A stretch of DNA of 64,000 nt from positions 937,501 to 1,001,500 of the forward strand of contig NZ_LVYV01000001.1 in the NCBI RefSeq assembly GCF_001618955.1, written 5' to 3'. This document shows, piece by piece, positions 48,296 through 64,000 of the stretch (its first letter is position 1; each line of letters begins with the position of its first letter). The notes beneath the pieces are model-generated. The model saw nothing but the letters and a program-made list of their open reading frames with translations, did no database searches and was not told the DNA's origin. Source of the stretch: Tardiphaga robiniae. Lineage in GTDB: Bacteria > Pseudomonadota > Alphaproteobacteria > Rhizobiales > Xanthobacteraceae. The translations under genes and the position numbers were made by a program.

Positions 48296-48351
48296 GGCAC
48301 CAGAGCTGCGGCTGACTGTTGCGACTAAAATGGATGGCGCCGGAGCGCGAT

Positions 48352-48396
48352 TGGTGCCGCAAACAGGACTCGAACCTGTGACCCCGTCATTACGAA
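48352..48396 (-). other. attachment site: 3' fragment of tRNA-Thr(CGT)
   Basis: On the minus strand, the last 45 nt of a tRNA are present, from the anticodon loop TTCGTAA through the anticodon-stem half TGACG, a variable loop, a perfect T-arm (ACAGG-TTCGAGT-CCTGT) and the acceptor half TTGCGGC with ACCA. The D-arm and 5' acceptor strand are missing; sequence diverges right at the anticodon loop. This is the pattern of an att site left by an element that integrated into a tRNA-Thr gene. The intact tRNA should lie at the other island end, beyond this window. Confidence 0.85.
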
Positions 48397-48544
48397 TTTC
48401 AAGCGACGTGTTACACAGCGTTGCCTGAAGCTTCAATTTGACAAAAACACCTTGCTATCAATGACATGCGTCTCATACTGCTTTTCAGGGCATCACACCT
48501 AATTAACTTCCTGGTGCTTCCCCGGTGCTTCCCGGAGCTTAGAA

Positions 48545-49807
48545 TTGCAGAAATTTCGCATATCAAAAAAATCGATCGACGCACTCCAGCCAACCCTGGC
48601 CGAATATACAGTGTGGGACAGCGAACTGCCGGGATTTGGAGTTCGAGTCCGGCCTTCTGGCGCTATGTCGTATATCTTGTGCTACCGCGCAGGGCGGGGA
48701 AGGAGATCTCCAACCCGAAGACTTACCTTAGGTTCAGTTGGCGCAATATTGCCTGATGAAGCCCGTCAGCTAGCGCGAAAACGGCTTGGTTCTGTTGCAC
48801 ACGGATCCGATCCGGCCGCTGAGGAGAGAGCGGCTAGGACAGCAATAACCGTATCAGAACTAGGCCAGGTGTTTTTAGCGCGCCACGTTTCAATCCGACG
48901 CAAAAGGCAGACGCTTGAGAGCTATCGACACATCATCGATGCTTACATAGTTCCAGCTTTTGGAAACATCGCGGCGAAGGATCTCACTCGATCTGAGGCC
49001 CAGTCGTTGCATGAACGCCTTGGACGGCGCCCGTCCGCAGCCAACCGCGTTATAGCCGTGCTTAGCAGCATTTATACATTCGCGTATCGACAACAGCTTA
49101 TCTCATCCGATCACAACCCCGCAAAAGGGGTCGAAAAATATAGAGAGATAAAGCGAGAGCGATATCTTTCCTCCACTGAGCTAGCGAGGCTGGGCGCGGC
49201 GCTGCGAGAGGGCGAAACAACGGGTATCATTTGGCACCCTAAAAAACCCGATGCGAAGCTCAAGCACCTTCCAGCCCTAGAGAACCGCAAGATATTGATT
49301 GATCAGTATTCGGCAGCCGCAATTCGACTGCTGCTCTTCACTGGGGCCCGCAAAAGTGAAATATTAAATTTACGTTGGCGAGAGCTTGATCTCGAACGAG
49401 GCCTATTCTTGCTTCCGGATTCAAAGACTGGGCAGAAAACTCTGTATTTGAATCCGGCAACGCTCCAAGTTCTGGCTTCGCTGCCACGCATAGGTGAATA
49501 TGTAATCGCCGGTTCAAAGATTGGCGCGGCGCGCTGTGATTTAAAGCGTCCATGGAAAGCCATTGTTACCCGCGCAGGCCTGGATAACATCCGACTACAC
49601 GATCTTCGACATACGCATGCTAGCTTTGGTGTAACGGCCGGCCTTGGGCTTCCCATTATAGGTAAGCTTCTTGGTCATTCGCAGCCTATGACAACGGCGC
49701 GCTATGCTCATTTGGGTGACGATCCCACAAAATTGGCATCACTTCAAATATCCGGTGCAATAGCGACCGCCCTGAATGCGGATGATACGGAAGGATTTGG
49801 AGCATGA
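48545..49807 (+). CDS. int: tyrosine-type integrase with DUF4102 N-terminal domain
   Basis: This 420-residue integrase begins at a TTG with GGAG 7 nt upstream. The N-terminal DUF4102-type arm-binding domain (LPGFGVRVRPSGAMSYILCYR, in pieces; LTLGSVGAILPDEARQLA) and SAM-like core-binding domain precede the catalytic domain. The catalytic residues are Arg in TGARKSEILNLRWREL, His-x-x-Arg in HDLRHTHASFG, His in LLGHSQPMTTARYAHLG and Tyr in the same segment. This class integrates islands at tRNA 3' ends, matching the tRNA-Thr fragment 150 bp upstream. It overlaps the next gene by 4 bp. Confidence 0.95.
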   Translation: MQKFRISKKSIDALQPTLAEYTVWDSELPGFGVRVRPSGAMSYILCYRAGRGRRSPTRRLTLGSVGAILPDEARQLARKRLGSVAHGSDPAAEERAARTAITVSELGQVFLARHVSIRRKRQTLESYRHIIDAYIVPAFGNIAAKDLTRSEAQSLHERLGRRPSAANRVIAVLSSIYTFAYRQQLISSDHNPAKGVEKYREIKRERYLSSTELARLGAALREGETTGIIWHPKKPDAKLKHLPALENRKILIDQYSAAAIRLLLFTGARKSEILNLRWRELDLERGLFLLPDSKTGQKTLYLNPATLQVLASLPRIGEYVIAGSKIGAARCDLKRPWKAIVTRAGLDNIRLHDLRHTHASFGVTAGLGLPIIGKLLGHSQPMTTARYAHLGDDPTKLASLQISGAIATALNADDTEGFGA

Positions 49808-50205: not shown

Positions 50206-50300
50206 GATAGACTCCTTTTCCATAGCGGACTGTTATCGACGATATTACTGAAATTCCCACAGTGAGTCGGAATGTTCCGGCACGTACCGTGGGCAATAAA

Positions 50301-50513: not shown

Positions 50514-50572
50514 TCGCTTTCGAGATATTTCAACTGATTGATCGGGTTGCTGCAAACGATACGGCGTAAGTC

Positions 50573-51559
50573 TTGCCCATAAAAATTTTTAAAAAGAGTG
50601 CAGTCTCTAACAAGACCAAAACCCTCCCAAATACCACTTTCGACGTCCTTCCCACTCCAGCGTCTAGCAAAAATTCTGGCCTCATACCGTTCATCGATAA
50701 GCTCAGTGTAGTCGTAACGGTTCAAGACAATGACGCTGCAAGCATATTCACGAACATATGGACCCAGATTTGCGACAAAACAGTATTCAATGAAGCGGGC
50801 TACAAAGCCAAGGGAAAGTACTCGTTCGCTAAATTTGTCGGTTTGCAAGCGTGCACTGCGCGACCCCTTCTTCAGTTTTTACACGAAGGGAAGAAAGCGT
50901 TGCGTTTCCGTATCGAATTCAACCCATCTGCGATCGGCTCTATTGGATTCTCCGAACTGCACGGGGTTCTAACGTCAATCATGCCGGGTGGATGGGACTA
51001 CGTAATCGAATACGGACGTATAAGTCGCATTGATATCGCAGTGGACATACCTGAAGCACGGCCTGGTATGTTTGCTGTGCTGCCAAAGCAAGGGCTTTCC
51101 ACGAAAGAATGGACGGTTGCCGGAAAGCTGCAGACTTTAGTGTTGGGGAAAAAAGGCGGCAATCAAACACTCATCTATAATAAAAAGGCACAGCAGCTGG
51201 GGCAAGGAAAACCCTGGGAGGGAAAAGCAACAGTTCGGGTCGAACGGCGAATGCTCAATCCCGCAATTAAGAAGCTGTCTAGCCTGCCAGATTTACCCAA
51301 CCCGTTCGCTGCACTTTCGCTCACCGAACTTCTAAACGCGCCGCCGACTGAGAAAGAATGGCTGTGGTCTCTTTTTAAGGATAGCGTTTCGGTTAGAGGT
51401 TTACCTGCGGCGTTGGCTCGCCTGCCAAAAGCAAAACGAACTTTGTATCGGAAGCACTTAGAGAGCCAGCCGCACCAACTCTGGGGGCCCTCGGTTATAT
51501 GGACCAATTGGCTTGCAGCTCTTGGTGAGCATGATCTGCATAAGTTTCATCATCAATGA
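50573..51559 (+). CDS. putative replication initiation protein (Rep_trans-like)
   Basis: This 328-residue protein begins at a TTG. It contains the pattern ISRIDIAVDIPEARPGMF, then LGKKGGNQTLIYNKKAQQLGQ, then TVRVERRMLNPAIKKL. This series of R-x-D-x-x-x-D, I/L-Y-x-K and R-x-E-x-R/x blocks is typical of the Rep_trans/phage replication initiator (HUH-related or inactive) proteins encoded by plasmids and integrative elements. The catalytic Tyr is not certain. Its position after an excisionase-like gene supports an element that can replicate after excision. The assignment is by pattern only. Confidence 0.6.
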   Translation: MPIKIFKKSAVSNKTKTLPNTTFDVLPTPASSKNSGLIPFIDKLSVVVTVQDNDAASIFTNIWTQICDKTVFNEAGYKAKGKYSFAKFVGLQACTARPLLQFLHEGKKALRFRIEFNPSAIGSIGFSELHGVLTSIMPGGWDYVIEYGRISRIDIAVDIPEARPGMFAVLPKQGLSTKEWTVAGKLQTLVLGKKGGNQTLIYNKKAQQLGQGKPWEGKATVRVERRMLNPAIKKLSSLPDLPNPFAALSLTELLNAPPTEKEWLWSLFKDSVSVRGLPAALARLPKAKRTLYRKHLESQPHQLWGPSVIWTNWLAALGEHDLHKFHHQ

Positions 51560-51863
51560 TGGAAGTTTGCAATTAATTGCACGCCTACGCAATCCGGCCC
51601 CTAGGCCCTACATATGCTCTGTACCGAGGACATGTTGGAGGACACGCAGCAATAGTTAAAGTGCTTGAGTTGAACCCGGTTCTAATTCGAATATTGCTGG
51701 CAGCTCAACGGGTTCGCACGAGGCGTGAAGGAAATCTGACTTTGTCTCTCAGCTGGATAGCACTGCGGCCAGACAGTTCAGCATGCTGCAGTTCTCGATG
51801 AACAATTGACCAGAAATTATGGACACATGCGCGCGGTTTTCTCGCGCATCCACCTAAGAAAGG
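51560..51863. other. intergenic region between convergent rep-like and DUF2971 genes
   Basis: This 304-bp stretch has no gene I can support. It begins with the 17-bp sequence that recurs at 54012-54028. Confidence 0.5.
51566..51582. repeat. 17-bp direct repeat, copy 1 (contains a 12-bp palindrome)
   Basis: TTTGCAATTAATTGCAC is identical to 54012-54028. Its core GCAATTAATTGC is a perfect palindrome. The two copies bracket the DUF2971 and RarA-like genes. Confidence 0.6.
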
Positions 51864-52739
51864 TCACTCAAACTCGACGGCAAATTTATGAACGGCCTTT
51901 TTGCCACTACAAACCCGCGCGTGAGGATACTTGGCCGCCAACACTTCTCTTAATTTCTTTCGGTTTGCTTCGTCCATACGGCAACCCAAATACAGACCAG
52001 TGACTTCTTTGGCATGAAATGAGACTAACTCGACACTTTTGCCTTGCTCCCATCCTCCGACCAGACGCCATTCTTTCTCGTAGGCCCAATCGAGTGCTTT
52101 TACGTAAAGGACGTCATCCCACAATTCTGGCCGGCCGATGGAGCCCTCTCCCGACAGGACCCGGATCATTCTCTGCTCATCAGCGAGAAATGGCATCTCA
52201 CTGGAATAACGCACGGGCTTAGCTGCTCCCCAGACACTATCAATCTCATCAACAACGGCTAACTCGATAACAGCGCCTGTATGATTATCCGCATAGTGCG
52301 CCCACATGAGATTGTTGTCGGGCACTTCAGTCAGACATAGCAGCTTTAATGGAGCCAGTACTGCTCGCAATTCTTCAAAATGAGCCGGAAGACCATTTTT
52401 CATCGCGGCCAACGACTCGATAAGCCCTGGGCGAAGCTGGTCCCGCAACTCTCTCTCGCTTAGACCCGGCACATTCCTTTGCAAAAACATAACTGCATTA
52501 GCCAGCTTGTTCGCTTCCGCCGCTCTTCGACGGCCCATGTACATATCGATCAGATTATTGAGCGACTGTTCGACAACGCGATCGTGGTCAAACTCCACCC
52601 GTAAATCGAATTGAACGTCGAAGGGATCATTGAAGAGCGTCGGAAGAGACCAACGAAAGGAATTATTTTCAAGGACTATTAGAGCGGTTTCGGCCGTCAT
52701 GTATTTGTAGAAGGTTCTTCGTGGCCCAGTTTTCTGCAT
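51864..52739 (-). CDS. DUF2971 domain-containing protein
   Basis: This 291-residue protein fits DUF2971. It has an N-terminal FYKYMTAETALIVLENNSFRWS and FNDPFDVQFD, the central LLCLTEVPDNNLMWAHYADNHTGAVIEL and the C-terminal YEKEWRLV with GLYLGCRM. The W-x-H-Y and KEWR motifs are the hallmarks. The family is of unknown function and is frequent in mobile and defence islands. AAGGAAC lies 7 nt upstream of the ATG. It is divergent from the RarA-like gene, 116 bp away. Confidence 0.88.
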   Translation of the reverse strand: MQKTGPRRTFYKYMTAETALIVLENNSFRWSLPTLFNDPFDVQFDLRVEFDHDRVVEQSLNNLIDMYMGRRRAAEANKLANAVMFLQRNVPGLSERELRDQLRPGLIESLAAMKNGLPAHFEELRAVLAPLKLLCLTEVPDNNLMWAHYADNHTGAVIELAVVDEIDSVWGAAKPVRYSSEMPFLADEQRMIRVLSGEGSIGRPELWDDVLYVKALDWAYEKEWRLVGGWEQGKSVELVSFHAKEVTGLYLGCRMDEANRKKLREVLAAKYPHARVCSGKKAVHKFAVEFE

Positions 52740-52855
52740 CGTGTTCCTTCACTCTTTTTCCGTTGTTTCTGCAAAACACTTTACTTGAGCGACAACAGGA
52801 TCATCGTCCAAGGTGGGCTAGACGTTTTTGCTCCTCACAAAAAAGGAGCGACAAC

Positions 52856-53938
52856 ATGAACGGATCAATCATTGTCTCACAGTCACGCGAACAGCTCGCG
52901 GACGAATTGTACTCCTACAGAGATTCACCGCCAATTCCTCTAAGCGTTTCGCCTTGGATTGCCATGAGTTTGCTGCAGAAGGCCATACGGCGCGGCGAGG
53001 TAGAGATTGCGTTGAGTGCGGCAGCCAGCTTATTACTGTCCTCGCCCGACAGACTCTGGAGGAGGATTGGGGCGGCGGCCTTTGAGGAGATCGGGGTAGC
53101 TGATCTTGATACTGTGTCCTTGGTTACCTCGGCCCTCGCCGGTAAGCGCTTTAGATCGTCTATCGGCGGAGACTGGAAGGTCGCTAGCTTTGCCGTCGAG
53201 CGAATGGCTAAATCCCTCAAATGTCGATCCGCAGACGATCTACTGTTGACTGCCGAACTTCATCCCCGATTTGCGCGAGCTCGCACTGCGCTAGCAACAA
53301 AATCAATTGGTGAGCTAGTGAAGATCAGCACTGGATCTGCGGCGCTTCCAGTCAGAGCTCTGGCGGCGTGGTTCGCCTGCGGTACGCATCCTAGGCAGAC
53401 TAAGCTACTGAGCCTCCGTCGCGGCGAACCAACCGTTGCCTTTGATCAAATGTGCGAAGCAGGCCTTCCACATACTGTAGTCGAGATTGCTCGGGAGGGT
53501 TACCGAACACTCGGGCTGCCTCTTTGTCCATTTTTGGCTTTGCTATCGCCACACGCCTTGTTGGAAGACAGTAGCTCTTGCGACGACGTATTTCCGGAAT
53601 CATCGACAATAGGTCCTGTTCCGAGCTGGTGTCTCGACATGTATACGCGCGAAGGGAGAGCGGCCCTGTCGAGATTTCTTGGTCTGAACTGCGAGACTGC
53701 ACGCTGGGTTCGTGACCATCTCCGACCGCCACACAGAGTTAACTTCGTCGGGACCGTCCTATTTCGGGTTGAAGGAGGACTAGTGCGTCACCGGGCACAA
53801 TGGTCATTGGCGGAAGAGCTACGGCGTCGCGTGGATATAGAGTGTCATGCTCCTCCTTGTAACGATGGGACAGAGTTACTTGGATGGATGCGTAACGACA
53901 TTCGCGCCCTGAATGAGGAGCGATCCAATGTCGGATAG
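52856..53938 (+). CDS. protein resembling the C-terminal region of RarA/MgsA
   Basis: This protein of 360 residues starts at an ATG with AAGGAG 8 nt upstream. Residues about 35-115 read ISVSPW-type followed by AMSLLQKAIRRGEVEIAL, then RLWRRIGAAAFEEIGVADLDTVSLV. This resembles the cluster in the C-terminal helical part of RarA/MgsA (S-x-x-Q-K-x-I-R-R, R-R-L-x-x-x-x-x-E-D-I-G-x-A-D), which mediates tetramer formation. The AAA ATPase domain of RarA is absent; the remaining 240 residues are unrecognised. It overlaps the downstream recombinase gene by 11 bp. The link to RarA is by eye and should be tested by profile search. Confidence 0.55.
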   Translation: MNGSIIVSQSREQLADELYSYRDSPPIPLSVSPWIAMSLLQKAIRRGEVEIALSAAASLLLSSPDRLWRRIGAAAFEEIGVADLDTVSLVTSALAGKRFRSSIGGDWKVASFAVERMAKSLKCRSADDLLLTAELHPRFARARTALATKSIGELVKISTGSAALPVRALAAWFACGTHPRQTKLLSLRRGEPTVAFDQMCEAGLPHTVVEIAREGYRTLGLPLCPFLALLSPHALLEDSSSCDDVFPESSTIGPVPSWCLDMYTREGRAALSRFLGLNCETARWVRDHLRPPHRVNFVGTVLFRVEGGLVRHRAQWSLAEELRRRVDIECHAPPCNDGTELLGWMRNDIRALNEERSNVG

Positions 53939-54926
53939 CCCCCTAACTCGTGATAACCTTCTATTATCGAGAACCATATTGGACAGCGAGGGGCTTAAAG
54001 TGGCGGCCAGATTTGCAATTAATTGCACAAGCGACATTCAATTCACCGTCGCCGACTGCATCCGAGATAGCCTCTCGGAGAATACGCGCGCTGCTTACCT
54101 GAGTGATCTCCTTCATTTCGAGAAATGGGGCGGCACGATCCCCGCGACTTCCGACACAATAGCAGCCTATCTCGCCGCACACGTTAGCTTGAATACTCCA
54201 GCAACACTTACCCGGCGTCTTGCCGCTTTAGCCAAGGTCCATCGATCTTTAGGCTTTAGCAATCCAACCTCAGCCGAGGTTGTTAAGGCCACAATGCGAG
54301 GGATAAGACGGATGAGAGGCCTCGCTCAACGTCAAGCAACTCCACTCGTGAAGGAGGATCTGTTTGTTGTGCTCGAATCGATGGGTGTCCGGCTGAAGGA
54401 TTACCGAGATAGGGCATTACTATTGTTGGGCTTCGCTGGCGGCCTTCGAAGGTCTGAATTAGTCGGGCTCGATTGGGAAGATCTTGTGTCGGTTCGGCAA
54501 GGTTTGGAGATAACTTTACGCCGATCCAAAACGGACCAAAATGGAATGGGCCGCAAAATTGGGATTCCGTACGGGAAAGGGCGTTGGTGTCCAGTAGTAA
54601 CGGTCGAACAGTGGCGAGTATCGACTACCCAGAAAGAAGGAGCTGTTTTTCGCTCGATTGACCGCCATCAAAGGATTAGTGAGCTGCGCTTATCGGGAGA
54701 AGCGGTATGCCTTGTTGTCCGTGAGCGAGTCAAAGCAGCCGGTATAGATGCAAAGAGCTATTCAGGTCACAGCTTAAGAGCTGGGTTGGCAACGAGTGCA
54801 GCACAAGCGAGAGTGCCATCTTGGATTATTAGGCAGCAAACTGGACATAACTCTGATGCGATGTTGAACCGGTACATTCGCCAGGGAAGCCTTTTTCTTG
54901 ACAATGCATCAGGGGCACTACTTTAA
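53928..54926 (+). CDS. tyrosine-type site-specific recombinase
   Basis: This protein of 332 residues starts at an ATG with GAGGAG upstream. It has an N-terminal SAM-like domain (SLSENTRAAYLSDLLHFEKW; LTRRLAALAKVHRSLG) and a catalytic domain with Arg in GFAGGLRRSELVGLDW, the H-x-x-R in SGHSLRAGLATSAAQ, and the late His and Tyr in TGHNSDAMLNRYIRQG. The Ser-Gly-His-Ser-Leu-Arg-Ala-Gly motif is typical of plasmid and transposon integrases of the Rhizobiales. It is coupled to the RarA-like gene and followed by a small gene with its own site; it is unlikely to be a tRNA integrase because it lacks DUF4102. Confidence 0.92.
   Translation: MSDSPLTRDNLLLSRTILDSEGLKVAARFAINCTSDIQFTVADCIRDSLSENTRAAYLSDLLHFEKWGGTIPATSDTIAAYLAAHVSLNTPATLTRRLAALAKVHRSLGFSNPTSAEVVKATMRGIRRMRGLAQRQATPLVKEDLFVVLESMGVRLKDYRDRALLLLGFAGGLRRSELVGLDWEDLVSVRQGLEITLRRSKTDQNGMGRKIGIPYGKGRWCPVVTVEQWRVSTTQKEGAVFRSIDRHQRISELRLSGEAVCLVVRERVKAAGIDAKSYSGHSLRAGLATSAAQARVPSWIIRQQTGHNSDAMLNRYIRQGSLFLDNASGALL
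54012..54028. repeat. 17-bp direct repeat, copy 2 (within the recombinase gene)
   Basis: Exact match to 51566-51582, containing the palindrome GCAATTAATTGC. It lies 85 bp into the recombinase coding sequence, encoding part of RFAINCTS. Confidence 0.6.
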
Positions 54927-54975
54927 CTACAGTGCATATGACTTTGATAGAAGAGCAGCCCTTCAGGAGGATAGT

Positions 54976-55176
54976 TTGGTACGTAAAACGGTTACATTTA
55001 CGCCCCACAATAGCACAGAGGAACGACAGTTTCATCTTGAGGAAAGTAAAGCCGAACGCTTTGCCTCGAGGGTGCGCGACGAGGGGGGGAGCGCTACGGT
55101 CGGCCCCTTACGTCTCGGGGATGATTTGACGACTTTGTTCACGAAGATTGGCATTGATCCGCTAAAGATTAAGTAG
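54976..55176 (+). CDS. small hypothetical protein (66 residues)
   Basis: A TTG at 54976 preceded by AGGAGG at 5 nt opens 66 codons (VRKTVTFTPHNSTEERQFHLEE at the start, in pieces; GPLRLGDDLTTLFTKIGIDPLKIK at the end). The frame is open upstream to an ATG at 54898 inside the recombinase gene, but only the TTG has this strong site. It probably is the third gene of the RarA-like / recombinase unit. No family recognised. Confidence 0.5.
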   Translation: MVRKTVTFTPHNSTEERQFHLEESKAERFASRVRDEGGSATVGPLRLGDDLTTLFTKIGIDPLKIK

Positions 55177-55281
55177 CAGTCATTCCAGTTTCACTCACTC
55201 GCTAAACAGACGGTTTGTGGGTCATGCGACGACGCACTTCTTAGATAAGGAAACTTCTCCGGATCAAAACCGCAAATCAGC

Positions 55282-57570
55282 CTAACTTCGTCTAATGCGT
55301 GAGCCGTCGCTCTCTATACGAGTTTCCCTTATCAGCCCAGCGATAATGGATCGCATCGTCTCAGTAATAATTGATCCTGTTCTTCTATAGCCCAACCACC
55401 TTGCAAAAGCTCTTATGCTGTCAGTGCGTTCGATCCATGCGCGAGAAGGCATGGATGCCACAAACTGATCTTTTAGAAAATCGCGCTCATAGTCCGAAAT
55501 CTTGCTTGCTGCGAGCGACAGCCCTTTTCCGTTGGAGCCCAGAATTCCCCGGCGCACCGCGGTCCTAATCAGTTTATCGATATCTTCGCGGACCTTAGAA
55601 CCGGTACGCCTAAACCCAAACTGCCTAGCAAGCTCTACTATTGCTCCGTCGCGATCTCGTACAAGGCCGTCCGAGAATACTTCTCTGAGTTGCAGCATCC
55701 AGTCATCGGGATCAACGCTCTGGCTTCTCTCCCTCGCCAGACTGTCGTCCAACTCCATTCCAACTTTGTTTTCAATATCATCAGCTACGTCGAAAATTAG
55801 CTCCGGCGGTGATTTCGTCGGGACTGGCAAATCAAGCTCTTGGAATGCGCTCCAGCATTCGGGCTTCTTAGCCCATTCACTTGGCATCTTGGGCTCCGCG
55901 GAAGTGCGCAGCTTCATATCTATGAGAACAACCCAATCACCCAGCATTTGACGCAGCTCTGTCGAAACACTTTGGGCAAGCCAAATTGCATCAAAGTCAA
56001 CATTTCCACTGGTTTTGAAGCTTAAGCAAGCGACGGTGTATGCGACAATATTCGCTTGATAGGCCGGAAACTTTTTTGCTTTAACTATTGCCTGCACAGT
56101 GCGAAATATGAGGCCTTTCGCGATCAAGGCTTTAAACCACGCTTGATCGAGCTCAAGGGACTGAGATTTACTGTCTTTCATCGCTTGCATAAAGAATTGG
56201 AAGTTTTTTTGGTTTCCGTAACTTACCAAGTTTGGGAAACCGTCCCAAGCATTTAAGTACTTGGCCAAATCGGTCTTAGAGATGCGCCTATCGCGCGGCG
56301 TTTCCATTGCGAACCGCTTGCGCTTCTCTGCTCGCGAGGATGACGCGAGTTCCTGAGCTCCATAGCTTCCACGGGCTCGCTCATAAAACCAACGTCCACT
56401 AGCATCGGGCAGCCAAACGTTATTTGCCAAGTTCTCCACGGATACATGAAACGGCTCGTTGGATGAAAAGTCCGCCGGCTGAACCGTGTTCTGACTGTTT
56501 GCTGATCGCGATACTGCGGCCACCATTTCGTCAAGGTTCGCACCTGTGACCGATATGATCTTTGCGGGAACGTGGATTTTTTCTAATGATGCTCTATCAA
56601 TGCGAAGAGCCCGATGAAGGCTTGCTGTTGTTTGCCCCCCGTTCACGATCTGCAATCCGCGTAAAGCTCGAATCTCAACACGGCCGGTTCCATCATCGGC
56701 AACCTCGATGCTATCGACCGTTGCTACAATGCCATTGTTATACGCTAGGAACCTGTCTGGTTGTTCTCTAATTGTCTTTCGAAGGTTTGCGTTTACAGAC
56801 TTTCTTCCGCTTAAGCCGAGAAACGCGCGTACGTTAAGCTCTAAAAGCCGCGTACCATACTTCTCGTATACGTCGGCAAGGAAGGCGCCTGGCAGCGCTG
56901 CCATGTATGCGTCGTAGCCTTCACCAATTGTGGAGACTTTTAACGCTGGGATTGTTCGGCCGCAGCTTTCCACGACATCTATAGCGATGTCATCGCGCGT
57001 GTAGCCTTTGCCCAGAATACGATGAAGGCGATCAATCCCGAAGAGATCCACGACGACTCGGGTGCCATCGAACGCCTTTTTCAAGTCAATTGATTTCAAT
57101 CCCGCTAGGCCATCCGAAAGTACTATGACTCTCAACGTGACGATGTGGTCGCGTCCCTCGTATATGCGTCGCGCTAAGTCGCTGGCATCTGTGTTTGCTG
57201 GTTCAATTTGCTTATAGAGTTCTTGACAGCTGCATTCGTAGAATTTGATCGCCTGCTGACAGGCCGTAAGTATCTCGTCCGTTGTCAGCTGGCGAAGGGT
57301 CGCATCTCCCAGATATACGGTCGTGATGAGAGTCAGGCGCTCAAGATCGTCAGGAATCGAATATCCACTAATCTTAAATCGCGTTCGACTGAACGTTCCT
57401 TCTTCCCAAAGAGGGGTTGGATTTTCCAGGGCTCCGTCATCTGAGAGCTCTTCGATCACAATTCGAGTAAATTCGCGTTCGTGGTAGGGGGTCTCATTCC
57501 CATCTTCAACGGCACTATCTACTTCAGATGCAAGTTCCTTAGCGTATTCTTCTAAACTCAAATCGTTCAT
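55282..57570 (-). CDS. AIPR (abortive infection phage resistance) family protein with two C-terminal repeat domains
   Basis: This 762-residue protein contains the AIPR core in the middle: LLELNVRAFLGLSGRKSVN and NLRKTIREQPDRFLAYNNGI, then RGLQIVNGGQTTASLHRA, and VAAVSRSANSQNTVQPAD. This is the family associated with abortive-infection phage resistance and often found with R-M genes. The last 125 residues carry two copies of a 45-residue domain around LARQFGFRRTGSKVREDIDK (about 645) and FARWLGYRRTGSIITETMRS (about 720), a possible DNA-binding winged-helix-like unit. It is the last gene of the methyltransferase/ATPase/Z1/PD-(D/E)XK operon, with its start overlapping the preceding stop by 4 bp. 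Confidence 0.9.
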   Translation of the reverse strand: MNDLSLEEYAKELASEVDSAVEDGNETPYHEREFTRIVIEELSDDGALENPTPLWEEGTFSRTRFKISGYSIPDDLERLTLITTVYLGDATLRQLTTDEILTACQQAIKFYECSCQELYKQIEPANTDASDLARRIYEGRDHIVTLRVIVLSDGLAGLKSIDLKKAFDGTRVVVDLFGIDRLHRILGKGYTRDDIAIDVVESCGRTIPALKVSTIGEGYDAYMAALPGAFLADVYEKYGTRLLELNVRAFLGLSGRKSVNANLRKTIREQPDRFLAYNNGIVATVDSIEVADDGTGRVEIRALRGLQIVNGGQTTASLHRALRIDRASLEKIHVPAKIISVTGANLDEMVAAVSRSANSQNTVQPADFSSNEPFHVSVENLANNVWLPDASGRWFYERARGSYGAQELASSSRAEKRKRFAMETPRDRRISKTDLAKYLNAWDGFPNLVSYGNQKNFQFFMQAMKDSKSQSLELDQAWFKALIAKGLIFRTVQAIVKAKKFPAYQANIVAYTVACLSFKTSGNVDFDAIWLAQSVSTELRQMLGDWVVLIDMKLRTSAEPKMPSEWAKKPECWSAFQELDLPVPTKSPPELIFDVADDIENKVGMELDDSLARERSQSVDPDDWMLQLREVFSDGLVRDRDGAIVELARQFGFRRTGSKVREDIDKLIRTAVRRGILGSNGKGLSLAASKISDYERDFLKDQFVASMPSRAWIERTDSIRAFARWLGYRRTGSIITETMRSIIAGLIRETRIESDGSRIRRS

Positions 57571-58580
57571 CGCAGCTTCCCAAGCATTTTTTCAGCAGCT
57601 AGTTCGAAAGCATCAATTTCACGCCTGAACGGAAGGAGTGCTTGCTCATCTATCACGTAGGCCCCGTCGATAACTCCCGCAGGAATGTCGGAATTAACAA
57701 GCCTGGGAAATCCCTGCATAACTTCGTAGAATCGAAAACCTTCATTTACCCAGCGATTATTCTCGTAAAGAGAACTATCAGATAACAAATAGCCAAGTCG
57801 CAATAATCGCTCGCCGAAGTCGGGGTCGGTGGCGCTCGGCTCATCTATCTTGACGCGGATCTTACCTATATATTCGTTCAGGGTAATTCCGTTGGAATCC
57901 TCTCGAAGGCGGAGCCTCACGACGAGGAGCTGGTTGAGCCCTTCCGTCTCAAGTTGGTTCAGAGTTGAGATTTGAATTCGGTTGCCGACACCGGTCGAAC
58001 TCTTCACTTCGAATGCAATGCCGCGCGCGCTGAAGTCATGGATACTATCTAGAGGGCCGCCCCACGCGGCTACGGCCTCCTTGTACCCTGCAGCGTCACC
58101 CAGCATTTCAAGAACAGCCACTTCACCAAACAGGCCGATCTGCTCCTCCAATGTGAGGCCTCTTCGGCCTGACCGAAGGCACGCCTGCCACGCTTCAAGC
58201 CTCCTGGTAGTTGCTCGTATTGCAGTCTTTGTGTTCGAGGCGGAAGCAACTACAGTCACAATGTCGGCGGCTAGTACCTCGAAAACATCGCGTACCTCCG
58301 AGCGCTCCAGTACGATTGCCACTCTATAAATATTTTCGCCAAACCTGCGTTGGTCCGCAACGGTCAATCCGTTTGCAGTGAAATGAATGAATTCTTTCGG
58401 GGCCTCTGCGAGCGGAGCTTCAAGTATGAGCGCAATCTTGTTGTCAGGTTCTCTGACGCCCACCAGAATGCGTAACGGCGCTATCGCGTTCAACGCAACA
58501 GCCCGCCATTCATGGCCACTTGGCTCAGAAGCGCTAACGCGAGCCCATTTCTCGATCAGTTCGGCTGAAGGATCAATCAT
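57567..58580 (-). CDS. PD-(D/E)XK motif protein (DUF4420-like nuclease)
   Basis: This 337-residue protein has the features of the DUF4420/PD-(D/E)XK group. A conserved Glu (LFGEVAVLEML, about residue 153) precedes the pattern LDSIHDFSARGIAFEVKSST with Asp 182, Glu 191 and Lys 193, the core of the restriction-endonuclease fold. This composition and the operon context suggest it is the DNA-cleaving subunit of the system (inference). Its ATG overlaps the Z1 gene stop by 4 bp and its own stop overlaps the AIPR start by 4 bp, so all three are translated as a coupled set. Confidence 0.88.
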   Translation of the reverse strand: MIDPSAELIEKWARVSASEPSGHEWRAVALNAIAPLRILVGVREPDNKIALILEAPLAEAPKEFIHFTANGLTVADQRRFGENIYRVAIVLERSEVRDVFEVLAADIVTVVASASNTKTAIRATTRRLEAWQACLRSGRRGLTLEEQIGLFGEVAVLEMLGDAAGYKEAVAAWGGPLDSIHDFSARGIAFEVKSSTGVGNRIQISTLNQLETEGLNQLLVVRLRLREDSNGITLNEYIGKIRVKIDEPSATDPDFGERLLRLGYLLSDSSLYENNRWVNEGFRFYEVMQGFPRLVNSDIPAGVIDGAYVIDEQALLPFRREIDAFELAAEKMLGKLR

Positions 58581-61342
58581 GCGAGTTCGAAACGCTGCTC
58601 CGTCGTGCTAAAAATGTACCGCACGGTCTGACCACTTTGCGACTCGGGAAAGCTCGCGACGACCGCGAATATTGGGACGTCGAGCTTTAGGTGTGCCGCA
58701 GAAGGAGAAAGTGGATAGAGTATGAGGAGAGCCCGCTTCGGATCGATTCCTCTAGTCCGCCTAATCTCTTGACCATCAGGAATTTTCGCTTTCGTTCCCC
58801 CGTTCGCCGCTCTTTTCCTATTAGTCGAAGCTAGCGCGCTTTCGAATTCCTCATCTGAGAGATCGACTGTTTCATCGGAAGGGGAAAGTGAGGTCTTGAC
58901 AACGTATCTCCCAGTGTCCGTCCCACGAGGAATAGGCGCCCTGTTTACGGTCGTGAACTCCATTCCGCGAACGGTTAGTGGCTCACCGGCACCGGCCGGC
59001 AAGCATATCGTCCAATCTGTCAGCTCACCGACCTTTATCTGTTCTCGAATATATTTAGCGAGCCGGAGTCCATTCACTTGTCTTGATTCTTCCGGGAAAA
59101 CCATCTCTGATAAGAGGTCGGCTACATCGCTACCCCTAACGCCGCTCCAAATACGCCTAGAGCTCGTACTGGTAAGGGCTGCATCGACTCTCTCGGCCAC
59201 GTTGAGAGGAGCCGGTTCGCCTAGATTGCCGAGAAATAAGGTTATTGCGGTGGCGTTCCGCAAATTGTTTGGACCGTCGTCGAAGAGAACAGTTTGGATC
59301 TTGGTTTCGCCCTGGAAGGAGATCTGGAATGTCTCTCCATGCCTCATTTTATTTTGTGCCGTAACAAGCATGATGTCATGAGCTTGAATCCTCAGACCAT
59401 AGTTCTCTGGAGTCGCCCCGATCATCGCCATGCTGTTTAATGACTCTCGAAGCTCGTCTGCAGCCGTTGCTACGTGGCGAAACCACAACGCCAAATCAGG
59501 CGTCAGATAGACGCGGCAAAGGTCAGCGTAGCCAGGACGATACCCGAACCATCGTCCCATCTGCATAAGGCTGTCATACATTTTGGAGGCACGAAGGAAA
59601 TAGCTAACGCTTAGTCCCTCCAATGTCAGACCGCGAGATAGTTTATCGCCACCTATCGCGATGATGTTTAAGCCCTGACCACTGTTTCCTTCGTAGTCAA
59701 TTGCCGCAGGCATCTCGCTATTTACGACTTGGATTCTGATCCGATCAACGGCTGCAGTTAGCTCATCCTTAAGGTCCTCCCAACTAATTGGGGGCGTATC
59801 CTTAAAGATGCCAAGCGAATTTAACTTTTGCGTCGTCGGTTCAAAATCGCTGATCCAAAGCTTCTGGCATGCTTCAACGAGAGGACGGCTTCCAGTCTTG
59901 TAGCGCAGGCTGCGCTTGAGATCGGTAAACCACTGATCAACTTGAGAGTATACTTTGCTCTGAACATCCTTAAAACGAGAGACGTGGATAAGCATGGAAT
60001 TGTGGACGCCGGACTGGCCTCGAACCGATCGAGCAGCGCAAACCAGTACAAAAGAAAGAATAGCGTCCTTTAAGGACGGCGGAATGTCGTCAGCATTTTG
60101 GTACTTTGGATTAAATGTCCTTTTGTGACTTGCTGTGATCCATCCTTCCTTGTCCTGATCAACGTGACGAATGATGTCCAAAGGTTCCGCGCCAGCATCT
60201 TCGCTGTCTAATCCGAAAACGAGTGATGGCCCGACATAGTTTGAGGGCGTAGGCAGGTTTACGATAAAGTTACGTGGAAATAGATCGGCTCCAAACCCGT
60301 CACTTGCTGCCTTGTCGTGAATAAGGATATTGGCGAAAGGCGTTGCGGTGTACGCCACGTATGCTCGCCGAGAGAAAGAAAATAGGAGGCGGCGAATTTG
60401 TCCATTTATTCGGGTGGGCTCGTAGTCGGACTCAGGAACTTCCTCGTCATCAAACCCCTGTTGCCCAGTATCAACGGACGCCTGATCGGCTTCGTCGTCT
60501 ATTACTAGCAACGGTCTTGTTTCTGTATCGCCTTTTGGTGTCAGTTTTTCGGATACCCAGTTGTTTAGATTTGCGAGAATCTTCGCATTTTTTTTCACAA
60601 CCATGAGAACGGGACGTTGTTGAACACCCATCCCGAGATTGTCAGCAAATGCTTGGTTGAAGTCACCATTTGCAGCTTGAGTGGTCAGATGCTCAGCATA
60701 GACGCCTCGGTCGAACTCATTAACTCCTATTGGCCTGTAGCCCTCCCCCCGGCCAGGCGGAGTCGTATCATATCCCAAAAAATCTCGATCTAGCCTTCGC
60801 TGCGTCTGCTGTCGCAGGGCATTGTGCATGCCAGCGAGAACTACGATTAACTTGTAACCCGCATCGGCTGCTTTGTTGGCTAAAGCGGCGTAGTTGGCAG
60901 TCTTTCCCGATTGCACATGACCTACTACCAATCCGCGTCGATCCCACGTTCCCTCGCGACTCGGATTTTCAAGCTGCTCCATTATTGTGTCAGTGGACGC
61001 ATCGATTGCAGTGACAGCGGCGTTAGCCCAACCTTGATTATGTAATAAAAAGTCTTCGTACCGCTTATAGAATCGCCGATCAGTTTTCTTTTCGCCGAAA
61101 TACCAGTCGACATGTCCGATGGCGTCAACAAGACTCGTCGCGTTGCCGACTTTTACGATCAGCTTTGATTCCAACTCGGCCTGAATTGTAGAAACCTGAT
61201 CCGGAGTCAGAGGAACCGGGAATGCCTTCTGACAATCGGTTAATGCCGCCGCAATATCACTTCTTTCGACTGCGGTCGTACCGTGCCGCTGACGGAGCAA
61301 GATCGTTGCCATAGAACCAATCGTTTCTTCCAAAGAAGTCAT
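58577..61342 (-). CDS. Z1 domain-containing protein (superfamily II helicase-like)
   Basis: This 921-residue protein has an ATPase core with Walker A GHVQSGKTANYAAL (about residues 141-148), and a DEAD-like Walker B in LLVIDDEADQAS (about 282-286). The Z1 domain follows with RAYVAYTATPFANILI and later GGDKLSRGLTLEGLSVSYFLR with MGRWFGYRPGYADLCRVYL, the signature blocks of the family. The HSP-like QSGKT motif and the T-A-T-P-F motif are those of SF2 enzymes. In known gene neighbourhoods Z1 proteins occur with a GHKL ATPase, a nuclease and a DNA methyltransferase, exactly as here. It overlaps the GHKL gene by 4 bp. Its likely role is DNA translocation or remodelling after target recognition. 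Confidence 0.93.
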   Translation of the reverse strand: MTSLEETIGSMATILLRQRHGTTAVERSDIAAALTDCQKAFPVPLTPDQVSTIQAELESKLIVKVGNATSLVDAIGHVDWYFGEKKTDRRFYKRYEDFLLHNQGWANAAVTAIDASTDTIMEQLENPSREGTWDRRGLVVGHVQSGKTANYAALANKAADAGYKLIVVLAGMHNALRQQTQRRLDRDFLGYDTTPPGRGEGYRPIGVNEFDRGVYAEHLTTQAANGDFNQAFADNLGMGVQQRPVLMVVKKNAKILANLNNWVSEKLTPKGDTETRPLLVIDDEADQASVDTGQQGFDDEEVPESDYEPTRINGQIRRLLFSFSRRAYVAYTATPFANILIHDKAASDGFGADLFPRNFIVNLPTPSNYVGPSLVFGLDSEDAGAEPLDIIRHVDQDKEGWITASHKRTFNPKYQNADDIPPSLKDAILSFVLVCAARSVRGQSGVHNSMLIHVSRFKDVQSKVYSQVDQWFTDLKRSLRYKTGSRPLVEACQKLWISDFEPTTQKLNSLGIFKDTPPISWEDLKDELTAAVDRIRIQVVNSEMPAAIDYEGNSGQGLNIIAIGGDKLSRGLTLEGLSVSYFLRASKMYDSLMQMGRWFGYRPGYADLCRVYLTPDLALWFRHVATAADELRESLNSMAMIGATPENYGLRIQAHDIMLVTAQNKMRHGETFQISFQGETKIQTVLFDDGPNNLRNATAITLFLGNLGEPAPLNVAERVDAALTSTSSRRIWSGVRGSDVADLLSEMVFPEESRQVNGLRLAKYIREQIKVGELTDWTICLPAGAGEPLTVRGMEFTTVNRAPIPRGTDTGRYVVKTSLSPSDETVDLSDEEFESALASTNRKRAANGGTKAKIPDGQEIRRTRGIDPKRALLILYPLSPSAAHLKLDVPIFAVVASFPESQSGQTVRYIFSTTEQRFELA

Positions 61343-62820
61343 TTTTTGAACCGATCTAGTTGTAGAAGCTTTTCGCGAAGTCCCTGTATTCCTTCATAAG
61401 GATCCATTTTTTGAACAGCTGTAATAGCGTCAGAAAATGCAAATCCGTTCTTCTCCAGCACATGGACAAGTTCGAGCGCCGACCGCACAGATGCGGCCTC
61501 GTCTAACAGAACTGGCTTTACTCCCTTTTCCGTAACGTCAAGCCAGACGCGTTCGACAGGAACCGTACGTTCGATTACATCGAGTATGCTATCCAAAAGA
61601 GATTGACGATCGCCCGACAGTCTTTTCCTCAATGTGGCGACTAACTCGTGGGTGCGATCAATGGAGTATCGTCGATCGCTGTTCTCTGCATTTATTTTCC
61701 AGATCTTAGAAACTTCTGAAGTAGCGGATCGTCGACCGTAATCGCCCCTATGAACAAGAATTTCTCGAGCGCGCCTTCGAACATCTTCCGCCAGTTGCTG
61801 TAGCCGCGGACGAATTGCATCCGGTGGTCGGGCTTCAGACTTTTTGATGTCTATCCGCCAATCCCGATCAGCGCTGTTTGGGATGTCGATACGTATACGA
61901 GCAAGCTTGCTGGCCTCATCGCGAGTCCAAGAACGGGAAGGCCCTAAGCCCAGCCATCCGCCGAAATAGATTAAACGCTTCTGTCGATAGACGTAAAAGC
62001 CTTGTTGGCTCAGCCACCCGTTCGGTCCGCCCGCTCGATCAAATTCTTCTTTTGTTGCGAAACGATCTTGGTAAGGGAGGATAAAGCCGCGAAATAGTAT
62101 CCTACCTCCGGGGCTGGGGATCGGTTGTATTGGCGTCGGGATGGAGTATGCCTCCAGAAAGGGATCCCAAGCCTTGACGGGTGATCCGTTGAGTAAAATG
62201 CTCAGCCTCGGAGCATCACCATCTAAGAACCTGTGAAAGACCATTCCTAGGTGATGATCTAAACGCTCCAAATCGCGCTTAAAGCTAGCGTGGCTAGGGA
62301 AGTCGTCTTTTCGACCGAAGTCTATTTTACGCCAAACGACTAGCGTGCCGGCAGAACTTCCATTGAGAATGGCGCGCAAATCTAATGGGAGACCCTCGTC
62401 GCCTTCAATAAGTTGCCAATTCGAGCCCATGTCGGCGAGGTAGTCGATGTCCCAAGTGAACGCTGTTTGATCGCTATGGGTCTTTGAAACAACAGTCAGT
62501 TGTCGGCATTGTGAAAACGATGCTGTTTTTAGGCCTAACCCAAAACGTCCAAGGTCATTTACGGTCCGTTCCGTATCAGGACCGCCTCCCCCGAACCTCA
62601 TCGCCTCGACCAACTTAGCTTCGGTCATGCCGACGCCGTCGTCGAATATCGCAGCAACAGGATTTCCTTCGTTCCACGCCAAATTCAAGGAGACCTGGCT
62701 GGCGCATGCGGTAATGCTGTTGTCGATAAGGTCTGCTACCGCGGTTTCTAGAGAATAACCGACGCCGCGCAGTGATTTGATCAATGCGGCCGCTGCAGGT
62801 GGTAGTGCTCTTGTTTTCAC
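61339..62820 (-). CDS. GHKL ATPase (paraMORC/HSP90-like ATP-binding protein)
   Basis: This 493-residue protein starts with the GHKL fold. The N-box is in ETAVADLIDNSITACA (Glu about 25, Asn about 34), G1 is DDGVGM (about 60-65) and G2 is GRFGLGLKTASF (about 91-102). A central region with VWRKIDFGRKD and a C-terminal helical part follow. This is the MORC-like/MutL-like ATPase class known from prokaryotic restriction-modification neighbourhoods. It probably dimerises on ATP and clamps DNA. It is 72 bp downstream of the methyltransferase gene and overlaps the Z1 gene by 4 bp. Confidence 0.9.
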   Translation of the reverse strand: MKTRALPPAAAALIKSLRGVGYSLETAVADLIDNSITACASQVSLNLAWNEGNPVAAIFDDGVGMTEAKLVEAMRFGGGGPDTERTVNDLGRFGLGLKTASFSQCRQLTVVSKTHSDQTAFTWDIDYLADMGSNWQLIEGDEGLPLDLRAILNGSSAGTLVVWRKIDFGRKDDFPSHASFKRDLERLDHHLGMVFHRFLDGDAPRLSILLNGSPVKAWDPFLEAYSIPTPIQPIPSPGGRILFRGFILPYQDRFATKEEFDRAGGPNGWLSQQGFYVYRQKRLIYFGGWLGLGPSRSWTRDEASKLARIRIDIPNSADRDWRIDIKKSEARPPDAIRPRLQQLAEDVRRRAREILVHRGDYGRRSATSEVSKIWKINAENSDRRYSIDRTHELVATLRKRLSGDRQSLLDSILDVIERTVPVERVWLDVTEKGVKPVLLDEAASVRSALELVHVLEKNGFAFSDAITAVQKMDPYEGIQGLREKLLQLDRFKK

Positions 62821-62892
62821 TTGATTCTTGCCCCGGAGCGAACTTGGCGCTTCGCGAGGTAAAGATCAACCGGGGGTGGTGCCGCAATAGTT

Positions 62893-64000
62893 TTAGTCTA
62901 GGATTGAATGCAGCGCCTCAGCAAGTTTCAAAGCAAGAAATGGCGGGACCGCATTTCCGACTTGGACGTACTGCTCCGTACGCCCGCCCTTGAAGAGGTA
63001 GTTATCTGGAAATGTCTGGAGCCTAGCAGCTTCTCTAACAGTTAGGCTTCGACATTGAGCGGGGTCAGGATGGATAAAATAATGTCCATCCTTTGCTATG
63101 TGGCTCGTCACAGTCGTAGCCGGTTGGTTCAATAGCTGCACGCGGAATCGATCGGCAAACTTACCGGAGTTCCAATTAAAATGGTTAGGGGCTAGGGACT
63201 TCGGAAAATCCAATGCCTTCGGGGAGCGTCCGACAACTTTCGCATATATTGCTGCAAAGAGGTATCGGCAGAGGTCACTAGCCATATGACCGCGCGTGTC
63301 GCTGTTTGGTAGTCTTGTTAATTTCGCATCATACAGCCATTGGCCGAGGATCTTGGGACAATCTGGTTCTAGGACATCCATATTGGCGGAGACCCTGCGA
63401 AGTTTCGAAGGTCGTCTTTCCCAGTCCGATCTGCATCGATCCAAGACCCTCTGGAAACTCGCTGCCGTGCCGGGATCAAGACCTAAATCTGCCGTCTGAA
63501 TTTTATGGGATGCATCAATAAGAGTGGAAATCCACGCCTCTGAGCTATCGTCTCGACTCAGTCCGCTTCGAAGCTTTGGCATGCCTCCAAGCACTTCTCC
63601 CACCGTTACTGGCTGCGATTTTTCTTGAAGTAACCCACGGTCTCGTAGTCGAGCTGGAACAGCCTTAGCTATATCACGTCGAACGCCGATAATGATCACT
63701 CGATGCCGTGCCTGAGGGATCCCACATTCTTCAGTACGTAAAACGAAATCAGATGAGCGCGTCGGCCTGTGCCCGCCTCCTGAAAAAATAGGGAAGAGCT
63801 CATACTCATTCTTAAAATTTGGACTCGTCAAATCGCTTAAGACTAATTCGAAGATTGAATCTCCGTCTACTTTTGCCGAGAGCAGACCTTTGACGTTCTC
63901 CATAACAAACGCGATCGGCCTAAGAGTCCGTAGTATTTCGATATATTCCTTGTAAAGGAAGTGGCGCTTGTCCTCGCGGGCTTTATAGCCCTTTATACCT
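62893..64000 (-). CDS. dcm: DNA (cytosine-5)-methyltransferase, N-terminus outside the window
   Basis: The visible part runs from the window edge, through MENVKG (motif VI) and PQARHRVIIIGVR (motif VIII), to the target-recognition region, and finally CRSLTVREAARLQTFPDNY and QVGNAVPPFLALKLAEAL (motifs IX and X). The reading frame continues upstream to 64000 (GYKAREDKRHFLYKEYIEIL), so the ATG at 63903 is internal. Motif I and the catalytic PCQ motif lie outside the window. The enzyme would make 5-methylcytosine at a specific site, protecting the host DNA. It is the first visible gene of the defence operon. Confidence 0.93.
   Translation of the reverse strand, partial: GIKGYKAREDKRHFLYKEYIEILRTLRPIAFVMENVKGLLSAKVDGDSIFELVLSDLTSPNFKNEYELFPIFSGGGHRPTRSSDFVLRTEECGIPQARHRVIIIGVRRDIAKAVPARLRDRGLLQEKSQPVTVGEVLGGMPKLRSGLSRDDSSEAWISTLIDASHKIQTADLGLDPGTAASFQRVLDRCRSDWERRPSKLRRVSANMDVLEPDCPKILGQWLYDAKLTRLPNSDTRGHMASDLCRYLFAAIYAKVVGRSPKALDFPKSLAPNHFNWNSGKFADRFRVQLLNQPATTVTSHIAKDGHYFIHPDPAQCRSLTVREAARLQTFPDNYLFKGGRTEQYVQVGNAVPPFLALKLAEALHSILD

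What the first reader, a model, noticed from the sequence alone, without database searches (positions are those of the whole stretch)
55282..64000. Five-gene defence-type operon: methyltransferase, GHKL ATPase, Z1, PD-(D/E)XK and AIPR
Five genes on one strand are joined by 4-bp overlaps (one gap of 72 bp), which points to a single complex or pathway. The set joins a cytosine-5 methyltransferase, a paraMORC-like GHKL ATPase, a Z1-type ATPase, a DUF4420-type nuclease and an AIPR protein. Iyer, Abhiman and Aravind (2008) described such GHKL/helicase/nuclease neighbourhoods as likely restriction-modification systems. The exact biochemistry is, to my knowledge, not settled. AIPR as last gene suggests a restriction stage plus an abortive-infection stage.
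Basis: partly seen in the sequence, partly recalled or inferred. Interest (0 to 1): 0.8.

Follow-up and report, generated by a model that had tools for sequence, protein, structure and literature searches.

The report
Methyltransferase-type Mza defence operon on island
A mobile DNA island carries a five-gene operon, related to a described but mechanistically unexplained anti-virus system, whose DNA-marking enzyme accompanies its relatives closely yet has often been exchanged for a different one.

Summary
Five intact genes lie on the minus strand with three 4-bp overlaps and one 72-bp gap: C5 methyltransferase (MTase), MORC-type GHKL ATPase, Z1 SF2 ATPase, PD-(D/E)XK nuclease (DUF4420), AIPR. 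The last four match PADLOC's MzaB-E; the MTase stands where sigma-type Mza has its sigma gene. Miller et al. 2022 described this architecture (Type II) and Iyer et al. 2008 foresaw it: a new member of a known kind. New here: it is cargo of an 18.3-kb island in tRNA-Thr(CGT) with a 48-bp att repeat; the site is empty in 4 of 4 congeners examined. A C5 MTase lies within 5 kb in 76 of 76 complete B-E loci with at least 4 kb of flank, yet the B-E tree needs at least 14 changes of MTase class (10 with two classes merged). No B-E protein significantly tracks these exchanges, though power is low. Sigma-type Mza is one nested clade. Loci without an AIPR match keep the MTase (6 of 6), so AIPR looks like an add-on. 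Best reading: ATP-dependent, methylation-gated restriction, closer to DISARM in logic than to a site-locked Type II enzyme. No activity was tested.

The parts
62893..64000 (-). C5 cytosine DNA methyltransferase, window part; the gene continues 428 bases beyond the window (511 aa in all)
   Evidence: Pfam DNA_methylase 1.1e-43; PADLOC best DrmMII 8.7e-87; catalytic Cys of PPCQ in 87 of 87 aligned loci
61339..62820 (-). MzaB-like MORC-family GHKL ATPase, 493 aa, GTG start
   Evidence: PADLOC MzaB 3.2e-121; MORC S5 motif GFYVYRQKRLI at residue 274; N-box and G2 residues present
58577..61342 (-). MzaC-like Z1 SF2 ATPase, 921 aa
   Evidence: PADLOC MzaC 9e-211; Walker A GHVQSGKT, Walker B VIDDEAD, DSLMQMGRWFG
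57567..58580 (-). MzaD-like PD-(D/E)XK nuclease (DUF4420), 337 aa
   Evidence: Pfam DUF4420 3e-62; PADLOC MzaD 8.2e-30; E153, D182, E191, K193 invariant; model pLDDT 93.5
55282..57570 (-). MzaE-like AIPR protein, 762 aa, with a C-terminal extension (residues 591-762) not found in the other 120 loci
   Evidence: Pfam AIPR 4.6e-84; PADLOC MzaE 6.3e-103; extension
48350..48397 (.). left att repeat of the island, 48 bp, identical to contig 1004176-1004223, where 46 of its 48 bases are the 3' part of an intact tRNA-Thr(CGT)
   Evidence: empty site in 4 of 4 congeners examined
48545..49807 (+). tyrosine integrase with arm-binding domain, next to the left att site
   Evidence: Pfam Phage_integrase 7.8e-19, Arm-DNA-bind_3 3.2e-13

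Best explanation
The operon is an ATP-dependent restriction system in which methylation sets the gate. The C5 MTase marks resident DNA (inferred from family). MzaC, a Z1 SF2 ATPase, moves on or remodels double-stranded DNA and drives the PD-(D/E)XK nuclease MzaD against DNA without the mark (inferred from CglI/NgoAVII, where a Z1 ATPase does this for another nuclease). MzaB, a MORC ATPase, acts as an ATP-driven clamp or looping factor (looping is Iyer's proposal for MORCs). MzaE (AIPR) is an add-on regulator or effector. The MTase is nearly always present but is exchanged between classes. I therefore think it likelier that the B-E machine responds to methylation generally, or borrows the MTase as its sequence reader, than that B-E carries a fixed site of its own. 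Vsr repairs T:G mismatches left by deaminated m5C (recalled, established for the family). Shown: gene content, intact catalytic motifs, synteny, MTase linkage and exchange, island boundaries. Inferred: every biochemical step.
For: Family matches. Catalytic residues of MzaB, C, D and the MTase are present in the window and near-invariant in 87 complete, non-identical loci; one MzaB G1 position is D in 40 and N in 47. C5 MTase within 5 kb in 76 of 76 complete B-E loci with at least 4 kb of flank on both sides (49, 17 and 10 in three sets); 0 of 10 HamA control loci. Of 87 loci with 6 kb on both sides of MzaC, 82 of 84 with MzaD have the MTase within 6 kb (L018 and L022 have it just beyond) and 0 of 3 without MzaD do; 6 of 6 with MzaD but no AIPR match keep it. 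The B-E tree needs at least 14 changes of MTase class, 6 being the fewest possible; 10 against 5 if the two largest classes are merged. In 8 non-overlapping pairs with exchanged MTase no B-E protein is significantly more diverged and no 40-residue window passes the family-wise test; one pair per exchange, six pairs, likewise gives no significant protein. Precedents: the Z1 ATPase of CglI is needed for cleavage and shows little or no ATP hydrolysis on DNA with methylated sites (passages); the DISARM motor is slowed by m5C and its authors propose selectivity without a given sequence (passages).
Against: MzaD shows a weak trend to extra divergence in exchanged pairs (0.038, p 0.064; 0.036, p 0.106 with one pair per exchange; neither corrected for four proteins). 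The all-pairs test favoured MzaD (r 0.24, 0 of 500 permutations), which would fit a site-locked nuclease; that signal was absent in non-overlapping nearest pairs (r -0.09 to 0.08). Power is low: about six separate exchanges. Exchanged MTases may share a target: TRDs of classes M1 and M2 keep 35-38% identity over 93-98 residues in two exchanged pairs. In 10 of 121 loci a restriction-enzyme match of the kinds searched lies nearby (L009, L010, L014, L016, L131, L149, L151, L152, L156, L157), so the MTase there may serve that enzyme. mzaABCDE is called validated as five genes, the first a sigma factor (Miller text), which suggests that B-E can act without a linked MTase in some host. Unlike CglI, NgoAVII hydrolysed ATP more on methylated and non-cognate DNA, and methylated DNA still supports some DISARM ATPase.
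Confidence: 0.6

Rival explanations
1. A classical site-specific restriction-modification system: MzaD (or B-E as a complex) recognises one DNA site of its own, and the MTase protects that same site.
For: MTase within 6 kb of MzaC in 82 of 84 loci with MzaD and in 0 of 3 without; Vsr often beside it; CglI is a Z1 system of this kind (passages). All-pairs r 0.24 for MzaD; MzaD trend p 0.064 and 0.106.
Against: At least 14 changes of MTase class on the B-E tree, or 10 with two classes merged, and no significant matching change in any B-E protein in non-overlapping pairs. Only about six separate exchanges, so power is limited, and some exchanged MTases may keep the same site.
Confidence: 0.22
2. 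The MTase is a separate solitary or Type II enzyme with Vsr that is co-selected on defence islands; B-E is an independent system that senses something else (for example phage replication) and AIPR kills the cell.
For: mzaABCDE is called validated as five genes without an MTase (Miller text). In 10 of 121 loci a restriction-enzyme match of the kinds searched lies nearby. MTase position and strand vary.
Against: 76 of 76 linkage against 0 of 10 in HamA controls, a small set from one class. Loci with a sigma gene directly before MzaB keep an MTase too: 6 of 6 with full flanks. In the window the MTase leads the operon 72 bp before MzaB, and no other restriction enzyme was recognised among the island proteins scanned (the 83-aa ORF at 50262 was not scanned).
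Confidence: 0.15

Closest known systems
Type II system of the 2022 Nat Commun paper PMC9523054, called Miller et al. here (author name recalled; section 11 read)
   Same: Z1 protein, PD-(D/E)XK DUF4420 (written DUF4220 there) protein, C5 MTase, AIPR and MORC-associated gene; described there as reminiscent of mzaABCDE
   Different: No subtype (II-A or II-B) could be assigned from the text; their putative transcriptional regulator was not identified with certainty (an XRE gene lies on the island, L002:1402-1812).
mzaABCDE (Gao et al. 2020, paper not held; seen through Miller's text and the PADLOC and NCBIfam models)
   Same: MzaB, C, D, E homologues in the same order
   Different: No sigma gene found; MTase in its place; all four proteins score below NCBIfam's equivalog cut-offs.
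MORC operons with a distinct SF2 (Z1) helicase, Iyer et al. 2008 (PMC2292703, section 3 parts 1-2 of 3 read)
   Same: MORC signature, DThhQXuRhFG-like helicase motif, E-D-ExK nuclease, cytosine methylase and Vsr in the text, AIPR in the figure legend
   Different: None seen in kind; it appears to be an instance of their third operon type.
CglI / NgoAVII (PMC4267653, passages)
   Same: Z1 ATPase plus separate nuclease plus MTase, ATP-dependent cleavage; methylated-site plasmid not cleaved
   Different: Nuclease there is a PLD protein with B3 domain; the passages name no MORC or AIPR protein.
DISARM (PMC9142583, passages)
   Same: MTase scores best with PADLOC's DrmMII model; motor slowed by methylation in that system
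   Different: No DrmA, DrmB or DrmC match among the proteins scanned; resemblance is in logic only.

Membership tests
Mza (mzaABCDE) | MzaB, MzaC, MzaD, MzaE homologues in order | tested here: met
   PADLOC 3.2e-121, 9e-211, 8.2e-30, 6.3e-103; order
Mza (mzaABCDE) | MzaA sigma factor | tested here: not met
   phmmer (E 1e-5) with the sigma gene of L151 finds none in L003, which spans 8.8 kb below the operon and 0.6 kb above its Vsr gene; the last 1.2 kb of the island and the rest of the genome were not searched with it
Mza (mzaABCDE) | scores above NCBIfam equivalog cut-offs NF041932-NF041935 | tested here: not met
   457/850, 803/1500, 174/420, 468/1050 bits
Mza (mzaABCDE) | protects against phage | not testable with these tools
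   needs plaque assays
Miller 2022 Type II system | Z1 + DUF4420 + C5 MTase core, plus AIPR and MORC | tested here: met
MORC family (Iyer 2008) | GhXhhpXXRhl motif after the GHKL domain | tested here: met
   GFYVYRQKRLI; 83 of 87 MzaB proteins; 18 of 2000 shuffles of the window protein; 0 of 87 in each of four other families
PD-(D/E)XK nuclease | E-D-ExK catalytic residues | tested here: met
   E153, D182, E191, K193
PD-(D/E)XK nuclease | fold match to a solved nuclease | tested here: inconclusive
   Foldseek with the MzaD model: no match at E below 0.001; the 50 rows listed are kinases at query TM 0.17 or less
ParB/Srx (DUF262, DndB) fold for AIPR | profile or fold match | tested here: inconclusive
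   hhalign probability 1.3 and 0.1 (control DUF262 against DndB 57.5); BFVD lists two proteins named DNA-sulfur modification-associated at prob 0.92 and 0.80 but E 0.08 and 0.18
DISARM | drmA, drmB, drmC genes | tested here: not met
   PADLOC scans of ten island proteins gave no Drm match but the MTase (the integrase, the recombinase and the ORFs at 49804, 50262, 50573 and L002:1959 were not scanned with PADLOC)
restriction-modification | cleaves unmethylated DNA, methylation protects | not testable with these tools
   needs biochemistry

The most novel reading that the evidence does not exclude
The B-E machine has no fixed DNA site: either the exchangeable C5 MTase is physically its sequence reader, so that one gene swap retargets modification and restriction together, or the motor is damped by cytosine methylation in any context. 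Canonical five-gene Mza, marked by its sigma factor, would then be one derived branch of a broader MTase-dependent system.
Probability: 0.35. Interest if true: 0.65.

Novelty: new member of a known kind. Interest (0 to 1): 0.42.

Why it matters
In the listings of six searches of the held library (three of them cut to the best 20 or 30) I saw no paper with biochemistry of Mza B-E. If the MTase is both obligatory and freely exchangeable, the open question of how such multi-gene systems tell self from foreign DNA becomes directly testable by MTase swaps. It would also suggest that experiments which clone only mzaABCDE leave out a partner gene.

Tried and rejected
MzaD as the specificity subunit: all-pairs partial Mantel gave r 0.24, 0 of 500, but non-overlapping nearest pairs gave r -0.09 to 0.08, p 0.6 or more, and exchanged pairs gave p 0.064 or 0.106; not accepted. 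The all-pairs result may come from saturation or relatedness (inference). The pairs share no row, but some share branches: L151/L157 with L152/L141, and L016/L015 with L009/L017; one search repeats the test with one pair per exchange.

AIPR as a ParB/Srx-type NTPase, suggested by the VNGGQTT motif: no profile support, weak fold hints only; left open. AIPR_N as a PD-(D/E)XK domain: the four best PDB matches of the MzaE model by E-value are two McrBC entries (chain M, taken to be McrC), AF1548 and a HamAB entry (chain A, taken to be HamA), at E 0.09 to 0.62, so a lead only; that these hold nuclease folds is recalled. MzaD fold search: nothing meaningful.

Target site of the MTase: not resolved. 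It is far from E. coli Dcm (23% over 290 residues). Of the 87 MTases compared, the best Dcm matches were L152 and L157 (52%); the next was 26%.

Pfam on the MzaE extension: DUF3320 at E 0.25, not significant. No match to the extension in the plasmid collection; in 18 genomes of the genus, the own copy and one weak match, 5.8e-4.

Rows dropped: of 100 complete B-E loci, 76 passed the flank filter. 96 of the 100 have an MTase anywhere on the locus; the 4 without (L028, L032, L037, L138) each have a flank under 4 kb. L066 and L084 look like two records of one sequence, so 76 may be 75 distinct. The window is not among the 76. A tenth sigma match, L142, is weak (26 bits), on the other side and strand, so I do not count it as sigma-type; one search had counted it (7 of 7). 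For the distance tests 88 of 121 loci had all five proteins well covered, 87 of them non-identical. MTase classes depend on a cut-off: seven at 0.30 and 0.35, six at 0.25. The tree is one FastTree run with several long branches. TRD extraction worked for 90 of 106 MTases, one of the 106 being E. coli Dcm. 10 of 41 plasmid records with a match were fetched, and of the class and phylum matches one short contig (G573) was not. The C5 MTase profile was built from MTases of these loci; other kinds, such as adenine methylases, were not counted. MTase linkage partly repeats what Miller et al. state as their core.
Full report
OBSERVATION. The five genes are there as described. MzaE-like 55282-57570, MzaD-like 57567-58580, MzaC-like 58577-61342 and MzaB-like 61339-62820 overlap by 4 bp each. 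72 bp separate MzaB from the MTase, whose gene runs off the window and is 511 aa on the same contig. Pfam supports each family. PADLOC names the last four MzaB (3.2e-121), MzaC (9e-211), MzaD (8.2e-30) and MzaE (6.3e-103). The MTase's best PADLOC model is DrmMII (8.7e-87).

SURROUNDINGS. G+C falls from about 0.61 to about 0.50 near 48-50 kb. A 48-bp perfect direct repeat lies at window 48350-48397 and contig 1004176-1004223; 46 bases of the second copy are the 3' part of an intact tRNA-Thr(CGT). A tyrosine integrase starts at 48545. The genus search (18 genomes, own included) found 4 congeners whose DNA matched the left flank over its whole length. In all 4, both flanks meet at an intact tRNA-Thr and the first 3.6 kb of the island is absent from that site; the other 13 were not examined there. 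So the operon is cargo of an 18.3-kb integrative island. A Vsr gene runs divergently 60 bp from the MTase start (vsr 1.5e-39), and an XRE regulator lies beyond it.

RELATIVES. A scan of genome contigs with MzaC kept 80 loci. Family searches found MzaC at E 1e-60 or better in 12 of 385 genomes of the class and 19 of 398 of the phylum, the own genome counted in both. Ten plasmid loci were added. In all, 121 loci (window included) were annotated with profiles built here. 100 hold all of B, C, D and E, and in all 100 these stand in that order on one strand; the MTase may lead, follow or face the block.

MTASE LINKAGE. Of the 100, 76 have at least 4 kb on both sides and all 76 have a C5 MTase within 5 kb (49 of 49, 17 of 17, 10 of 10). 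Vsr lies within 5 kb in 23 of 49, 14 of 17 and 9 of 10. Control: 0 of 10 HamA loci (13-19 kb each, one class) have a C5 MTase or Vsr match. Sigma-type loci, with a sigma gene directly before MzaB: 9 found, 6 with full flanks, all 6 with an MTase. In 87 loci with 6 kb on both sides of MzaC, the MTase is within 6 kb in 82 of 84 with MzaD and in 0 of 3 without; the two others, L018 and L022, have it about 4.9 kb from MzaB. Six loci have MzaD but no AIPR match, four of them no MzaB match either; all six keep the MTase. Miller et al. already list Z1, DUF4420 and C5 MTase as their core. These counts extend that to sigma-type Mza and separate AIPR from the core. Caution: 10 of 121 loci hold a further restriction-enzyme match of the kinds searched, which may be the MTase's partner.

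EXCHANGE. The window's MzaB-E are nearest to Bradyrhizobium among the first 83 loci (MzaC 64-65%, MzaB 58-59%, the first 592 residues of MzaE 62-65%, MzaD 44-46%), but its MTase is about 27-28% like Bradyrhizobium's and nearest, at 52-56%, to those of L143, L127, L132, L154, L119 and L144. Over 87 loci the MTases fall into seven classes, and the B-E tree needs at least 14 changes of class, 6 being the fewest possible. With the two largest classes merged it needs 10, 5 being the fewest. The eight sigma-type rows of that tree form one clade (support 100), with L153, which has no sigma match, as its sister; it is nested among MTase-type loci unless the root lies inside it.

CO-VARIATION. If B-E carried its own site, one of its proteins should change with the MTase. 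All-pairs: MzaD r 0.24 (0 of 500), MzaE 0.08 (14 of 500), MzaB and MzaC none. Non-overlapping nearest pairs: no signal in MzaD; MzaE r 0.22-0.32, p 0.07-0.16. Eight exchanged pairs against 28 others: MzaD 0.038 (p 0.064), the rest p 0.13 or more; no 40-residue window passes the family-wise test. One pair per exchange, six against 28: MzaD p 0.106, the rest p 0.146 or more. This is an absence of evidence with low power. TRDs of classes M1 and M2 remain related in two exchanged pairs (35-38% over 93-98 residues); the M2/M3 pairs tested share only about 40 residues.

PROTEINS. MzaB: MORC signature in 83 of 87. MzaC: Walker A and B and motif VI arginines conserved. MzaD: E153, D182, E191, K193 invariant; its model is confident (pLDDT 93.5) but has no PDB match. 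MzaE: core of the model fair, C-terminus poor (mean 77); its best PDB matches are not significant. No PDB relative by sequence for MzaD or MzaE up to E 1; for MzaC only chance-level matches at 0.24 and 0.95. Residues 591-762 of MzaE match no other of the annotated loci and contain a 43-residue internal repeat, 35% identical, 2e-6.

MECHANISM. Precedent one: in CglI the Z1 ATPase is DNA-dependent, needed for cleavage, and shows little or no ATP hydrolysis with methylated sites; NgoAVII was less strict (passages). [quoted passage not shown] The linkage and exchange data fit the second logic somewhat better. MORC as a looping ATPase is Iyer's proposal. AIPR's activity is unknown.

STATUS. Known kind: Miller 2022 Type II and Iyer 2008. 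Not an Mza equivalog by NCBI's cut-offs. The interest lies in the MTase pattern and the clean island, not in a new family. Gao 2020 could not be read; what is said of mzaABCDE comes from Miller's text and the profile libraries.

Noticed in passing
window 48350-64000 and contig to 1004223: 18.3-kb integrative island in tRNA-Thr(CGT), 48-bp att repeats, site empty in 4 of 4 congeners examined.
   Followed up: yes
window 55282-55800: MzaE C-terminal extension (residues 591-762) with an internal repeat, in no other annotated locus; weak likeness to PADLOC PDC-S37 (7.2e-5) and DUF3320 (0.25).
   Followed up: partly
window 51864-52739: DUF2971 protein matching PADLOC candidate PDC-S31 (2.8e-39): possibly a second defence gene on the island.
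   Followed up: no
window 53913-54926: Second tyrosine recombinase (Phage_integrase 2.9e-16) inside the island.
   Followed up: no
L018:3819-7496: A 1225-aa protein matching PADLOC CARF_STK_AAA (1592 bits) lies between MTase and MzaB; L022 has a similar 1220-aa gene by its opening residues.
   Followed up: no
L009:5798-6994, L014:2839-4005: PADLOC 'methyl-directed restriction enzyme' genes between MTase and Vsr next to Mza.
   Followed up: no
L131 (G017, same genus): An Mza relative whose MzaD matches lie in two pieces about 2.3 kb apart.
   Followed up: no
G000:C1:746384-751097: Two further C5 methyltransferase matches elsewhere in the same genome, and a partial one on C54.
   Followed up: no
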